Below are positions 8,324 through 62,548 of a DNA stretch of 64,000 nt, piece after piece. How positions within the stretch are numbered: the stretch's first letter is position 1; each line of letters begins with the position of its first letter. A program made the translations under genes and the position numbers. The stretch spans positions 62,001 to 126,000 of the forward strand of contig NZ_BONF01000033.1 in assembly GCF_016862575.1 (NCBI RefSeq), in the 5' to 3' direction. This DNA is from Catellatospora bangladeshensis (GTDB lineage Bacteria; Actinomycetota; Actinomycetes; Mycobacteriales; Micromonosporaceae). The notes beneath the pieces were generated by a model. It had not been told where the DNA came from, made no database searches, and was given only the letters and a program-made list of their open reading frames with translations.

Positions 8324-8377
8324 CGTTAAGAAGGGCACCTTCTTCTACGCATAGCGTTAAGAAGGTGCCCTTCCTTT
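8324..8377 (-). repeat. 53-bp double-hairpin repeat, copy 1 (downstream of asd)
   Basis: Two palindromic units built on AAGAAGG(GCA or TGC)CCTTCTT flank a short CTATGCGTAG-type spacer. Read on the minus strand, the element starts AAAGGAAGGGCACC only 3 nt after the asd stop. Its two halves can pair into one long hairpin. It is one of nine copies in the window and may act as a transcription terminator. Confidence 0.85.
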
Positions 8378-8380
8378 GGG

Positions 8381-9406
8381 TTAGGAGAGTTCTGCGCGGA
8401 CGAGTTCGGCGATCTGGACGGCGTTGAGGGCGGCGCCCTTGCGCAGGTTGTCGCTGGAGCAGAACAGGGCCAGGCCGTTGGGGGCGGTCTCGTCGCGGCG
8501 GATGCGGCCGACGTAGGTCGGGTCCTGGCCGGCGGCCTGGAGCGGGGTGGGGACGTCGGCGAGCAGCACGCCGGGCGCGTGGGCGAGCAGCTCGCGGGCG
8601 CGCTCGGGGCTGATCGGGTTCGCGAAGCGCGCGTTGATCTGCAGCGAGTGGCCGGTGAAGACGGGCACGCGGACACAGGTGCCGGAGACCGGCAGGTCGG
8701 GGATGCCGAGGATCTTGCGGCTCTCGTTGCGGAGCTTCTGCTCCTCGTCGGTCTCGAACGAGCCGTCGGAGACCAGCGAGCCCGCCAGCGGCAGCACGTT
8801 GAACGCGATCGGGTGCGCGTACACCTTCGGCGCCGGGTAGTCGACGGCCGCGCCGTCGTGGGTGAGCGCGCGGGCCTCGCCGATCACGGCGCTGGCCTGC
8901 TCGTGCAGCTCGTCGACGCCGGTCAGGCCGGTGCCGGAGACGGCCTGGTAGGTGCTGGCGATGAGGCCGGTGAGGGTGGCCTCGTCGTGCAGCGGGCGCA
9001 GCACCGGCATGGCGGCCATGGTGGTGCAGTTCGGGTTGGCGATGATGCCCTTCGGGCGCAGCTTGGCGGCCTGCGGGTTGACCTCGGCGACGACCAGCGG
9101 CACGTCCGGGTCCAGGCGCCAGCCCGACGAGTTGTCGATGACGACCGCCCCGGCCGCGGCGACCTTCGGCGCGAGCGCGAGCGAGGTGGTCTTGCCCGCG
9201 GAGAACAGCACGATGTCGAGCCCGGTGTAGTCGGCGGTGGCCGCGTCCTCCACCGTGACCTCGGTGCCCTGCCACGGCAGGGTGCGCCCGGCCGAGCGGG
9301 CCGAGGCGAACAGCCGCAGCTGGTCGACGGGGAAGTTGCGCTCCGCGAGGACCCGGAGCATGACGCCGCCGACCTGGCCCGTGGCTCCGACAATGCCGAT
9401 TCTCAT
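8381..9406 (-). CDS. asd: Aspartate-semialdehyde dehydrogenase
   Basis: A 341-aa enzyme that reduces aspartyl phosphate to aspartate semialdehyde with NADPH, the branch step to lysine/diaminopimelate, threonine and methionine. The NADP-binding loop is GATGQVG (residues 7-13). The catalytic cysteine is C127 in NPNCTT and the general-base histidine is H253 in VFTGHSLQ. Length fits the family. The start, complement of 9404-9406, matches the conserved [10 protein letters not shown] opening. There is no lysC (aspartokinase) in the window, although the two genes are often adjacent in actinomycetes; here asd stands apart from an amino-acid operon. Confidence 0.97.
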
Positions 9407-9505
9407 GCGTACAGGCTACTCACCGGCGCCGTCCGCCGATCTCACGATCCCGTCATCCGGGCTCCCCACCTGCGTGATCAGCGGCACGCCCCGTGTCGGG
9501 GGACG

Positions 9506-10369
9506 TCAGCCGCGGCCGAGCGTGACGGCGACGGCACCCGCGACCACGCCGAGGGCGGCGAGCAGCCGCCGCCACATGTCGCGCTCGCCGAGCAGCCGGG
9601 CCCCGAGGAACACCACCAGCAGCACGCTGACCTCGCGCAGCGGCGCGACCACGGTCACCGGGGCCATCGTCATCGCGGTCAGCGCCAGCATGTACGCCCC
9701 CGGCGAGCAGATCGCGGTGCCGAACACCTCGCGCCGGTGGTCCCGCCACACCTGCCGCACCCTCGCCCGCTGGCGGATCAGCACCGGTGCCAGCAGCAGC
9801 GCGCGGCCGGTGTCGCCGCCCCAGTTGACCAGGATCGGCGACAGGGCGGCCACCGCCACCGCGTTGCGGTCCCAGAGGGTGTACGCGGCGATGAACACGC
9901 CCACGCCGAGCGCGTAGAAGATCGGGGCGCGCCGCTTGAGCGCGTCCGCGTCGGGCCTGCCGATCAGCGCCACGCTCACCGACAGCGCGAGCGTGCCCGC
10001 CCAGCCGAGCAGGCCGGGGTCCTCGCCGAAGACCGGCACCGCCACCGCGCAGATCAGCACCGGGCCCAGGCCGCGGGCGACCGGGTACACCACCGACAGG
10101 TCGCCGACCGCGTACCCGCGCTGGAGCAGCAGGTAGTAGCCGGTGTGCAGCAGGGCCGCGCCGCCGAGCAGGCCGAGGCTGCCCCAGCCGAGCCGGTCCC
10201 AGCTCGTGACCAGCGCCCAGATCCCGAACGGGGCCCAGATCAGCGCCGCGACGACCGACCAGACGGCGACGAACAGGGTGCCCGCGACGGCGGCGCGTTT
10301 GGACATCAGATTCCAGGTGGCGTGGCACACCACAGAGGCGGCGATCAGGCCGAGAGCCAGCGGCGACAT
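9506..10369 (-). CDS. EamA/DMT-family transporter
   Basis: A 287-aa membrane protein with about ten hydrophobic segments in two EamA repeats. The first begins LALGLIAASVVCHATWNLMSKRAA (residues 4-27), the usual opening of DMT transporters. The second half begins near residue 145 (PIFYALGVGVFIAAYTLWDR), and PLREVSVLLVVFLGARLLGE in the last quarter is the conserved C-terminal EamA signature. Such proteins export metabolites or amino acids; the substrate cannot be read. The ATG (complement of 10367-10369) lies 2 nt after the stop of the upstream phosphodiesterase gene, so the two are translationally coupled. Confidence 0.9.
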   Translation of the reverse strand: MSPLALGLIAASVVCHATWNLMSKRAAVAGTLFVAVWSVVAALIWAPFGIWALVTSWDRLGWGSLGLLGGAALLHTGYYLLLQRGYAVGDLSVVYPVARGLGPVLICAVAVPVFGEDPGLLGWAGTLALSVSVALIGRPDADALKRRAPIFYALGVGVFIAAYTLWDRNAVAVAALSPILVNWGGDTGRALLLAPVLIRQRARVRQVWRDHRREVFGTAICSPGAYMLALTAMTMAPVTVVAPLREVSVLLVVFLGARLLGERDMWRRLLAALGVVAGAVAVTLGRG

Positions 10370-10371
10370 GG

Positions 10372-60949: not shown

Positions 60950-60969
60950 TCGGGGCGTAGCCTCAGGCC

Positions 60970-61485
60970 GTGCTCAATCCACTGCGCACCTGGGACCTGA
61001 GCCCGAGTTCGCCGGTGCTGGCCGAGCTGGCCGAGCTGTACGCCGGCAACGCCGACTACCACCGGCTCAGCGGCGACTTCGGCGACCGCCCGGAGGAGGT
61101 CACCGCGGCGCAGGTCGCCGCGGCGCTGGACGCCGAGCTGGCCGAGCCGGGGGTGGAGGTGCTGCTGGCGCGCACCGGTGGCGACGGGGGCGGGTCGCTG
61201 ACCGGCGTGGTGGCGGTGCTGGACACCCATCCCGCCGACGGCCTGCCCTGGATCGGGCTGCTGCTGGTCGACGCCCGGCGGCGGGGCCGCGGGCTGGGGC
61301 GGGCGGTCGCGGAGGAGGTGCACGACCGGCTGCGTGAGCGGGGCCGCCCCGCGGTGCGCCTGGCCGTGCTGGAGAACAACGCCGCCGCGCTCGCGTTCTG
61401 GGGCGCGCTGGGCTACGCCGAGATCGACCGGCGGCCGGACCGGCAGGCGGGGCGCGACTGCGTCGTCATGCACCGGCCGCTGTAA
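60970..61485 (+). CDS. GNAT family N-acetyltransferase
   Basis: A 171-aa acetyltransferase. Motif A is WIGLLLVDARRRGRGLGRAVAEEVHDRLRERG (about residues 96-127), with R-R-G-R-G-L-G as the acetyl-CoA loop. VRLAVLENNAAALAFWGALGYAEI gives the conserved N-x-x-A-x-x-F/Y-W-x-x-G-F/Y end of the fold. The start is a GTG at 60970. It is the last gene of the CBS-BON cluster; a CebR-like box overlaps its stop codon. Confidence 0.88.
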   Translation: MLNPLRTWDLSPSSPVLAELAELYAGNADYHRLSGDFGDRPEEVTAAQVAAALDAELAEPGVEVLLARTGGDGGGSLTGVVAVLDTHPADGLPWIGLLLVDARRRGRGLGRAVAEEVHDRLRERGRPAVRLAVLENNAAALAFWGALGYAEIDRRPDRQAGRDCVVMHRPL

Positions 61486-61494
61486 GCGCTCTCC
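61482..61494. promoter_or_regulatory. CebR/LacI-like box before aldo/keto reductase
   Basis: GTAAGCGCTCTCC matches the GAGCGCTC-type core and lies 15 bp before the aldo/keto reductase start, overlapping the GNAT stop. It resembles the right half of the box at 32826-32837. A role is inferred only from similarity. Confidence 0.35.
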
Positions 61495-61508
61495 CGTAGG
61501 CTGTCGCA

Positions 61509-62495
61509 GTGCAGCAACGAATCCTCGGCCGGACCGGCCGGAACGTGGGCGTGATCGGGCTCGGCGCGTGGCAGCTCGGCGCCGACTGGGGCAGCGTCAG
61601 CGAGGACGACGCCCTGGCGGTGCTCGACGCGGCGGTCGCCGCGGGCGTGAACTTCATCGACACCGCGGACGTGTACGGCGACGGCCGCAGCGAGCAGCTG
61701 ATCGGGCGCTTCTTGCGCGAGGGCGGGGCCGGCGTCCCGCTCACCGTGGCGACCAAGATGGGCCGCCGGGTCGCCCAGGAGCCCGGCAACTACGTGATGG
61801 ACAACTTCCGCGCCTGGAACGACCGGTCGCGGGCGAACCTCGGCGTGGACACGCTGGACCTGGTCCAGCTGCACTGCCCGCCGACTGCGGTGTACTCGAC
61901 CGACGCCGTCTTCGACGCCCTGGACACCATGGTCGAGGAGAAGCGGATCGCCGCGTACGGCGTCAGCGTGGAGACCTGCGACGAGGCACTGGCCGCGATC
62001 GCCCGGCCGAACGTGGCCAGCGTCCAGATCATCTTCAACGCGCTGCGGCTCAAGCCGCTGGAGCGGGTGCTGCCCGCCGCCGCGGCCGCCGGGGTGGGCA
62101 TCATCGCCCGCGTCCCGCTGGCCAGCGGCCTGCTGTCGGGGCGCTACGACGAGCACACCACGTTCGGGCCGGACGACCACCGCACGTACAACCGGCACGG
62201 CGAGGCGTTCGACGTCGGCGAGACCTTCTCCGGCGTGGACTTCGCGACCGGCCTGGCGGCGGTGCGCCGCCTCGCCCCGCTGGTGCCGCCCGGCGCGACG
62301 ATGGCCCAGTTCGCGCTGCGCTGGATCATCGACCAGCCCGGCGTCAGCGTGGTCATCCCCGGCGCCCGCAACGCCGAGCAGGCCCGCGCCAACGCCGCCG
62401 CCGCCGACCTGCCCGCCCTCACCCCCGACCAGTTCGCCCTGGTCGCCGAGGTCTACGACGACCTCATCCGCCCCCAGATCCACCACCGCTGGTAA
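61509..62495 (+). CDS. Aldo/keto reductase
   Basis: A 328-aa NADP-dependent reductase of the AKR superfamily (YhdN/AKR11-like). It opens LGRTGRNVGVIGLGAWQLGADWG; NFIDTADVYGDGRSEQLIGRFL carries the catalytic Asp and Tyr, TKMGRR the Lys, and LVQLHCPP the His. C-terminal FALRWIIDQPGVSVVIPGARNAEQARANA binds NADP. These enzymes reduce aldehydes or ketones, often sugars. The GTG at 61509 has no strong ribosome site. The TAA stop is overlapped by repeat copy 9. Confidence 0.92.
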   Translation: MQQRILGRTGRNVGVIGLGAWQLGADWGSVSEDDALAVLDAAVAAGVNFIDTADVYGDGRSEQLIGRFLREGGAGVPLTVATKMGRRVAQEPGNYVMDNFRAWNDRSRANLGVDTLDLVQLHCPPTAVYSTDAVFDALDTMVEEKRIAAYGVSVETCDEALAAIARPNVASVQIIFNALRLKPLERVLPAAAAAGVGIIARVPLASGLLSGRYDEHTTFGPDDHRTYNRHGEAFDVGETFSGVDFATGLAAVRRLAPLVPPGATMAQFALRWIIDQPGVSVVIPGARNAEQARANAAAADLPALTPDQFALVAEVYDDLIRPQIHHRW

Positions 62496-62548
62496 AAGGA
62501 AGGGCACCTTCTTAACGCTCCGCGTATAAGAAGGTGCCCTTCTTAACG
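62495..62548 (+). repeat. 53-bp double-hairpin repeat, copy 9
   Basis: It begins in the last base of the aldo/keto reductase stop (TAAAAGGAAGG) and ends TTCTTAACG, between convergent stop codons. The spacer is CTCCGCGTATA. The units are in opposite loop orientation and form one long hairpin. Confidence 0.9.

What the first reader, a model, noticed from the sequence alone, without database searches (positions are those of the whole stretch)
8324..62548. Nine-copy 53-bp element locked to gene stop codons
Nine copies (8324, 21354, 23046, 24301, 26957, 28867, 29799, 39760, 62495) lie in 64 kb, about one per 7 kb. Each has two units built on GGAAGGGCACCTTCTTAACG around a variable spacer of about 12 nt. 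Eight of nine read AAAGGAAGGGCACC directly at the 3' end of the gene on the same strand; in four cases the element starts within the stop codon or 3 nt of it (TGAAAGG, TAAGG, TAAAAGG). Position and orientation are too regular for random insertion. Possible readings are a mobile element that targets stop codons or terminators, a family of terminators spread by copying, or a 3'-end RNA signal.
Basis: partly seen in the sequence, partly recalled or inferred. Interest (0 to 1): 0.8.

Follow-up and report, generated by a model that had tools for sequence, protein, structure and literature searches.

The report
Stop-codon-locked hairpin repeat family
A short self-complementary DNA repeat has been copied many times through the genomes of Catellatospora and some related soil bacteria, mostly right behind the stop codon of a gene, where its RNA should fold into a strong hairpin that probably marks the end of the transcript.

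Summary
All nine copies are present; eight lie in sense orientation at a gene's 3' end, and the ninth (24300) lies antisense, 9 nt from a stop. The unit is better described as one 52-nt imperfect palindrome (AAGG...TTAAC) folding into one long hairpin than as two tandem units.

In 1.25 Mb of the same genome I found 82 two-unit copies. Of 64 sense copies in spacers, 54 have a stop codon at -5..+6, against 13.4 expected for random placement; a sister species gives 39 of 48 against 6.5. Copies avoid operon-like junctions and prefer convergent spacers. Stems are held by compensatory changes across genera.

Between two sister species the sites are mostly shared, but the hairpin interior often differs. 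Empty sites exist. The family occurs patchily in Micromonosporaceae (13 of 44 genera sampled) and in none of 146 sampled genomes of the class outside it.

The closest known kind is the REPIN (inverted REP doublet; here GTAG foot in 67 of 82). However, no Y1/RAYT transposase was found in the own genome or in four element-rich genomes of other genera. Best reading: RAYT-less, REPIN-like 3'-end hairpins. Termination and the mobiliser are inferred, not shown.

The parts
8324..8378 (-). element copy 1; sense to gene 8381-9406 (-), semialdehyde dehydrogenase; 2 nt between stop and column 1
21352..21406 (+). element copy 2; sense to gene 20407-21345 (PAC2 family); at the junction where a ~1.6-kb stretch present in G007/G009/G008/G004 is missing
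23045..23099 (+). element copy 3; sense to gene 21493-23043 (AMP-binding enzyme); filled in G007/G005/G003, degenerate, shortened, half or long in G006/G002/G001/G010, empty in G009/G008/G004
24300..24354 (-). element copy 4; the only antisense one, 9 nt from the stop of gene 23265-24290 (+), a membrane transport protein
26956..27010 (+). element copy 5; sense, TGA abuts AAGG; gene 26487-26957 (AhpC/TSA); no element in G009/G008/G004 (other hairpin-like sequence by eye) nor in G002/G001 (another palindromic repeat)
28865..28919 (+). element copy 6; stop TAA uses the AA of the element (TAAGG); gene 27114-28868 (ABC transporter)
29798..29852 (-). element copy 7; called ORF 29800-30207 (-) runs through the element to its distal TAA (-53); ORF has no Pfam match, so the frame is uncertain
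39759..39813 (+). element copy 8; gene 39292-39780 (HxlR) ends at a TAA inside the element (-22)
62494..62548 (+). element copy 9; TAA abuts AAGG; gene 61509-62495 (aldo/keto reductase); convergent with 62553-64352 (-)

Best explanation
The element is a REPIN-like interspersed palindrome of 52 nt: two inverted 18-nt palindromes with a short, fast-changing centre. Transcribed with the gene in front of it, it folds into one hairpin of about 17 bp plus a small apical stem, beginning at or within a few nt of the stop codon. The hairpin most likely defines the mRNA 3' end: a U-poor ('I-shaped') terminator, or the roadblock to which 3' exonucleases trim a Rho-terminated RNA. Being a palindrome, it can serve both genes of a convergent pair. 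Copies arise by insertion of element copies from elsewhere; those behind stop codons survive because they do no harm, or are useful, there. Existing copies are then partly overwritten in place by other copies, which keeps each species' set similar. Shown here: repeat family, position, hairpin with compensatory changes, empty and filled sites, interior change at fixed sites, absence of a detectable RAYT in this genome. Inferred: transcription end-forming activity, overwriting as the cause of the interior change, the copying enzyme, and the reason for the stop-codon lock.
For: Position: 54 of 64 sense copies in spacers have a stop at -5..+6, expected 13.4; G007: 39 of 48, expected 6.5; other genera: 24 of the 25 copies (of 40 examined) that could be given a coding ORF have its stop at -25..+15. 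A facing stop lies within 15 nt of one end, or inside, in 69 of 82 (G000) and 50 of 61 (G007). Context: of 86 copies (82 two-unit, 4 single), 40 convergent, 28 tandem sense, 10 antisense to both neighbours, 5 divergent, 3 inside a called gene; genome spacers 214 convergent, 624 tandem, 208 divergent. Residual tandem spacer <25 nt in 0 of 28 (G007: 1 of 25), while 175 of 624 tandem spacers are that short. Structure: consensus folds at -34.6 kcal/mol, z -8.9. On 109 copies of several genera, 11 of 21 pairs of the long hairpin show double changes, against 4.5 in shuffles (0 of 500 reach it); the two-small-hairpin alternative gives 3 of 14, reached by 66 of 500. Columns 13-42: A-U 48, C-G 38, unpaired 22. 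Role: without an element, 21% of 160 sampled convergent and of 160 sampled far-tandem gene ends have a hairpin with z<-3, against 3% of 160 operon-like ends and 0 of 132 CDS stretches; with one, 68% of 68 and 71% of 34. Some orthologous ends without the element carry other GC-rich inverted repeats (by eye). Interior change: at 45 shared G000/G007 sites the 5' arm differs at 1.2% of columns, the 3' arm 4.1%, the middle 19%; 10 of 45 middles are identical.
Against: No RNA data were available. No U-tract follows the stem in sense (AAC, then flank). A hairpin starting at the stop would be covered by the terminating ribosome. 13 of 82 copies have no called stop within 15 nt; 10 of 86 are antisense to both neighbours, 5 lie in divergent spacers and 3 inside called genes; some may be errors of my gene caller. 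Low arm divergence is no proof of selection: unrelated copies differ as little in the 5' arm (1.0%). Identical middles at shared sites (10 of 45) exceed random re-pairing (1.1), so much of the interior is still inherited site by site; one of the 45 is a half element, which inflates the divergence. Mean middle identity is only slightly higher within G000 or G007 (0.75) than between them (0.72). The apical stem often fails to pair (columns 22-32: 47 of 109; 25-29: 49 of 109), and 16 of 83 own copies carry a flipped core (GCA/GCA) that breaks stem pairs. The two-hairpin fold has some signal too (further pair types 13, reached by 6 of 500).
Confidence: 0.6

Rival explanations
1. A true RAYT-mobilised REPIN family whose RAYT was lost, or lies in a gap or beyond the models used; the present copies are a relic.
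For: Architecture of inverted doublet, long hairpin and variable spacer matches REPINs (abstract and passages of PMC3116915). GTAG stands at the foot of the second palindrome in 67 of 82 copies, and GTAG is the tag of one REP superfamily (PMC3733652). Y1_Tnp occurs in 6 of the other 10 genomes of the genus and in the element-rich G061 and G076; three congeners have sub-cut-off matches to the RAYT model.
Against: Own genome (99.69% complete) has 0 Y1_Tnp and 0 RAYT matches; 0 of 11 genomes of the genus reach the RAYT cut-off (E. coli is among the 6 of 14 controls that match; one control, not named, is over the cut-off). Element-rich G020, G056, G070, G082 have 0 Y1_Tnp. No GTAG at the foot of the other palindrome (0 of 82).
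Confidence: 0.2
2. Purely selfish repeat: insertion is random, and the stop-codon map only reflects where insertions are tolerated.
For: Dense genomes leave few harmless sites; divergent spacers and operon junctions would be counter-selected; no clear target duplication.
Against: Tolerance alone does not predict distances of -5..+6 within spacers that offer far more room (54 against 13.4 expected), nor the sense bias (28 tandem sense against 10 antisense to both neighbours), nor compensatory changes in the stem, although the last could serve a DNA hairpin needed for copying.
Confidence: 0.2
3. Translational control element: a hairpin within 15 nt of the stop slows the last ribosomes and lowers output of the gene in front of it.
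For: E. coli REPs fewer than 16 nt from a stop are reported to lower translation (stated in PMC12306157, passages); here 63 of 82 copies have a sense stop within 15 nt or inside the element.
Against: Does not explain avoidance of operon-like junctions and enrichment between convergent genes. Not exclusive with the best explanation.
Confidence: 0.12
4. DNA-level site: binding site of a nucleoid protein or gyrase, or a DNA-uptake-type signal that happens to sit at gene ends.
For: E. coli REPs bind gyrase (text and reference list of PMC8049555, passages); terminator hairpins formed by uptake signals are mentioned in PMC2267715 (passages).
Against: Single units are rare: 82 of 109 groups of matches are paired, and most of the 27 singles are 5-mismatch hits. 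No match of one copy in plasmid or phage collections. Neither point tests protein binding.
Confidence: 0.06

Closest known systems
REPIN (REP doublet forming a hairpin), Bertels and Rainey 2011, PMC3116915 (abstract and passages seen)
   Same: Two inverted short palindromic units, conserved ends, less conserved spacer, one long hairpin, many extragenic copies, doublets commoner than singles.
   Different: Unit starts 31 bp apart instead of 71 or 110 bp; no RAYT found in the genome; doublets there are described as randomly distributed in extragenic space, here they are locked to stop codons in sense orientation.
GTAG-tagged REPs, Di Nocera et al. 2013, PMC3733652 (section 15 and two passages seen)
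   Same: Between convergent and unidirectional genes, close to 3' ends; REP ends may supply the stop codon; GTAG at the foot of a palindrome.
   Different: GTAG at one palindrome only and in 67 of 82 copies; stops supplied by the element are mainly TAA, made with its AA or TTAA; the words Micromonospora, Salinispora, Frankia and Actinobacter* do not occur in that text.
U-poor stem-loop 3' ends of Streptomyces clavuligerus (HS-U-lack TEPs), PMC8269248 (passages seen)
   Same: GC-rich stem-loops at 3' ends without U-tract; 353 such ends against 182 U-rich ones in that study.
   Different: Nothing in the passages makes them a repeat family; no 3'-end data were available here.
DNA-uptake-sequence terminators (recalled; mentioned in PMC2267715 passages)
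   Same: Inverted pairs of a genome-wide repeated short word forming gene-end hairpins.
   Different: Uptake words also occur singly in large numbers (recalled); here single units are rare.

Membership tests
REPIN | Inverted doublet of a short repeated palindrome forming one long hairpin | tested here: met
   82 of 109 groups of unit matches are pairs; fold and covariation
REPIN | High-copy, extragenic, with less conserved spacer | tested here: met
   270 exact 16-mers genome-wide; 3 of 86 inside called genes; middle varies most
REPIN | Cognate RAYT (REP-associated tyrosine transposase) in the genome | tested here: not met
   PF01797: 0 in own genome, E. coli control matches; NF047646: 0 in own genome, 0 of 11 genomes of the genus over cut-off. 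The assembly has 115 contigs, so a gene in a gap is not excluded
REPIN | Excision or insertion as a unit | tested here: inconclusive
   Empty versus filled orthologous sites, e.g. G009 against G004 in a 6-nt convergent spacer; no direct mobility data
GTAG REP | GTAG at the 5' foot of the palindrome | tested here: inconclusive
   67 of 82 at the second palindrome, 0 of 82 at the first read on the other strand
Rho-independent terminator | G+C-rich stem followed by a U-tract | tested here: not met
   Stem met; in sense the stem is followed by AAC, no U-tract (columns 52-54)
Rho-independent terminator | Transcripts end there | not testable with these tools
   no RNA 3'-end data held
MITE | Target-site duplication | tested here: inconclusive
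   among 448 settings of length and offset the best 3-mer agreement is 6 of 82 (shuffled mean 1.5, largest of 60 shuffles 5); nothing stands out for that many settings, but old insertions could have lost it
MITE | Parent insertion sequence with matching ends | not tested
   No systematic search; no two half elements flanking a gene were noticed among the 27 singles of the 1.25-Mb sample

The most novel reading that the evidence does not exclude
A self-spreading family of mobile 3'-end hairpins ('mobile terminators') aimed at stop codons and mobilised by something other than a RAYT, which also overwrites resident copies in place, so that a whole genome's set of gene-end hairpins evolves in concert.
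Probability: 0.25. Interest if true: 0.75.

Novelty: new variant of a known kind. Interest (0 to 1): 0.52.

Why it matters
REP-like repeats have been debated for decades: parasites, terminators or RNA stabilisers? This family has a tight stop-codon lock, stem compensation across genera and, in a pair of sister species, interior change at fixed positions. It also lives in genomes where the transposase thought to spread such repeats was not found. Patchy presence between species of one genus offers natural with/without pairs in which transcript ends can be compared directly.

Tried and rejected
Two separate small hairpins as the functional fold: less covariation. Ordinary unrelated terminators resembling each other: rejected, mean column identity is 90% over 55 columns. 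Target-site duplication: none convincing. Plasmid or phage carriage: one copy as query, no match. Rfam: no match at gathering score in the window. RAYT/Y1 mobiliser: not found in own genome. Occurrence outside the family: 0 of 146 genomes of the class outside the family (148 searched with the stricter filters; the two of this family are the own genome, with matches, and G013, without), 22 of 76 family genomes (own and three congeners among them) and 13 of 44 genera. Literature: the core was searched (two unrelated papers in the listing), and topic searches were made; no paper describing this family was seen in those listings. That is not proof of absence, as the library lacks most subscription journals and one search was left unused.

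Mistakes and weak points: the pattern had one N too many, so its near-zero counts for this genus mean nothing; its few matches in genus g4 were of a related core. The spacer classes printed count copies with a stop inside the element wrongly (divergent 11); those are used. The own-genome sample is only partly unbiased: C8 and C10 are contiguous, several other stretches were chosen because hits were listed there. Genes come from my own caller, not an annotation. Match counts are capped at 75 and 150. Of 86 own copies, 32 found no counterpart in the G007 stretches; parts of the own sample (C1, C5, C9 and more) had no G007 counterpart fetched. Of 54 located pairs, 7 were dropped from the column comparison (two long forms, two half elements, one expanded middle, one empty, one with an extra gene and no element) and 2 more as inverted (one true inversion; in the other the script picked the second of two adjacent elements).
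Full report
WHAT IS THERE. The window belongs to an 8.83-Mb genome (G000). The genus is probably Catellatospora (Micromonosporaceae): two genomes that the tool places in the same genus have contigs of the same length as named records (315,771 bases, Catellatospora sp. KI3 = G009; 475,790 bases, C. tritici = G004). Across 1.25 Mb of the genome (stitched) I found 86 elements, 82 of them with both units. Their 55-column alignment has sharp limits: columns 3-54 are conserved (AAGGAAGGGCACCTTCTTAACG - centre - GAAGGTGCCCTTCTTAAC), columns 1, 2 and 55 vary.

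ANATOMY. The two units are inverted relative to each other, so the whole element is one imperfect palindrome. The consensus folds into a 17-bp stem with a small apical stem (-34.6 kcal/mol, z -8.9). On 109 distinct copies (38 from other genera, 34 from other Catellatospora, 37 own), 11 of 21 pairs show double changes, against a mean of 4.5 in shuffles (0 of 500 as high), and 88.1% of cells pair, against 46-58% when the partner is slid. Columns 13-42 are A-U in 48 copies, C-G in 38, unpaired in 22. The alternative of two small hairpins shows a weaker signal (3 of 14 pairs with double changes, 66 of 500 shuffles as high; further pair types 13, 6 of 500 as high). The structure was derived from the consensus, which favours it in the slide control, and relatedness of copies inflates the shuffle control. 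GTAG stands just before the second palindrome in 67 of 82 copies.

POSITION. Genes were called with my own script. Of 64 sense copies in spacers, 54 have the stop at -5..+6, where random placement in the same spacers predicts 13.4. In the sister species G007 (870 kb) it is 39 of 48 against 6.5. In other genera, 24 of 25 copies that could be given a coding ORF (of 40 examined) have its stop at -25..+15. Stops at elements are TAA in 27 of 63, against 82 of 1056 genome-wide; in 18 of 63 (distances -3, -4, -22, -36, -53) the element supplies part or all of the stop. By spacer, the 86 copies are 40 convergent, 28 tandem sense, 10 antisense to both neighbours, 5 divergent and 3 inside a called gene. 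In tandem pairs the spacer left after subtracting 55 nt is under 25 nt in 0 of 28 (G007 1 of 25), though 175 of 624 tandem spacers are that short. This is what a terminator or 3'-end element would show. Against it, 13 of 82 copies (G007: 11 of 61) have no facing stop within 15 nt.

COMPARISON WITH ORDINARY GENE ENDS. Folding 60 nt after the stop, 21% of 160 sampled convergent ends and 21% of 160 far-tandem ends without an element have a hairpin at z<-3, against 3% of 160 operon-like ends and none of 132 coding stretches; with an element it is 68% of 68 and 71% of 34. At the site of copy 26956, G009, G008 and G004 lack the element and have other GC-rich inverted repeats after the stop (seen by eye, not folded), and G002 and G001 have another palindromic repeat. 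The element seems to take the place of ordinary 3'-end hairpins.

EVOLUTION. Homologous regions of ten congeners were fetched and 0.8 Mb more of G007. Of 54 located G000/G007 pairs, 47 have a full element at the G007 site. Among the 45 in the same orientation the arms hardly differ (1.2% and 4.1%), the middle differs at 19%, and 10 of 45 middles are identical (1.1 expected if sites were re-paired at random). In an ungapped comparison of the 40 nt upstream, 23 of 45 pairs have at most 7 mismatches; the others are shifted by gaps or diverged. One of the 45 is a half element in G000. At C2:59816 the G007 copy is inverted at the same site, and at two sites a long form replaces the short one. Common centres differ by species: CTATG in 33 of 83 G000 copies, TTTTC in 23 of 61 G007 copies, CTCCG in 6 of 8 (G005), 3 of 4 (G002) and 3 of 4 (G003). 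The first core is GCA in 83 of 83 G000 copies, but GCC in at least 30 of 36 KI3 and at least 21 of 31 tritici copies (those loci were found with a pattern that allows both). Yet mean identity of the middle is only slightly higher within G000 or G007 (0.75) than between them (0.72). Copying between elements explains the pattern best, but fast change of the centre at each site is not excluded. Empty sites exist, for example a 6-nt spacer between convergent stops in G004 that holds an element in G009. No convincing target duplication was seen.

DISTRIBUTION. With the covariance model, 22 of 76 sampled genomes of the family and 13 of 44 genera have matches, patchily within genera (e.g. G020 at least 150, G073 1; G082 at least 150, G057 6). 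In the class-wide sample of 148 genomes only the own genome matched; the sample included one other family member (G013), without a match. The exact 16-mer is in 10 of 11 genomes of the genus and in none of 30 other genomes of the family and order. One copy as query finds no match in plasmid or phage collections.

MOBILISER. Y1_Tnp is absent from the own genome and present in 6 of the other 10 genomes of the genus. The RAYT model has no hit over its cut-off in the 11 genomes (three weak ones below it), while E. coli is among the controls it matches. Of the element-rich genomes of other genera tested, G020, G056, G070 and G082 have no Y1_Tnp, G061 and G076 have one each; the element-poor G013, G073, G081 and G057 have none. 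If a HUH transposase moved these copies, it is gone, in a gap, or unlike the models. A long form of about 84 nt holds a 27-nt word that occurs exactly (two positions left free) 0-10 times per genome, in 9 of 11 genomes of the genus; whether it is a parent or a derivative is open.

WHAT IS KNOWN. REPINs (PMC3116915, abstract and passages) are the closest kind in build. E. coli REPs fewer than 16 nt from a stop are reported to lower translation (PMC12306157, passages). Streptomyces clavuligerus has more U-poor than U-rich stem-loop ends (353 against 182; PMC8269248, passages), so the missing U-tract is no bar to a 3'-end role. What appears new is the combination: a family not seen in the listings, no RAYT found, a tight lock to stops, and interior change at fixed sites.

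VERDICT. Real and non-random wherever sampled. Most likely a RAYT-less REPIN-like family of 3'-end hairpins. End-forming activity and the copying machinery are inferred.

Noticed in passing
G000:C10:57986-58073 (L028); G007 sites orthologous to C10:61685 and C2:33375: Long form of the element (about 84 nt) with internal GTCGGCTCGCGTNAGCGNGACGAGCAG; this word occurs 0-10 times per genome in 9 of 11 genomes of the genus. It may be the parent or a separate structured RNA.
   Followed up: partly
L095 about 10830-11020 (G002); L104 about 87-269 (G001): At the gene end homologous to window 26957 another palindromic repeat (CGCAACTCTTAAAGAGT... / ...ACTCTTCAAGAGTTGCGG) stands in place of the element.
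   Followed up: no
G007 after the element homologous to window 23045 (L079 about 5065-5220); G010 and G003 at the gene end homologous to window 39780: Further inverted repeats at gene ends: GATCGCGAGTTCGTGTCC... in G007 and TGATCATGAACTT...AACTTCATGATCA-type in G010/G003, suggesting that several palindromic repeat families share these positions.
   Followed up: no
window 21345-21493: A stretch of about 1.6 kb present between the same two genes in G007, G009, G008 and G004 is missing here, and element copy 2 lies at the junction.
   Followed up: no
G000:C9:267487-267541 (L062) and C9:5040-5094 (L058): One copy is a perfect palindrome and another nearly so (centre GGACGTCC), as if one arm had been copied onto the other.
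   Followed up: no
own copies, columns 42-44: The inner core of the second unit is flipped (GCA instead of TGC) in 16 of 83 own and 12 of 61 G007 copies, which breaks stem pairs yet persists.
   Followed up: partly
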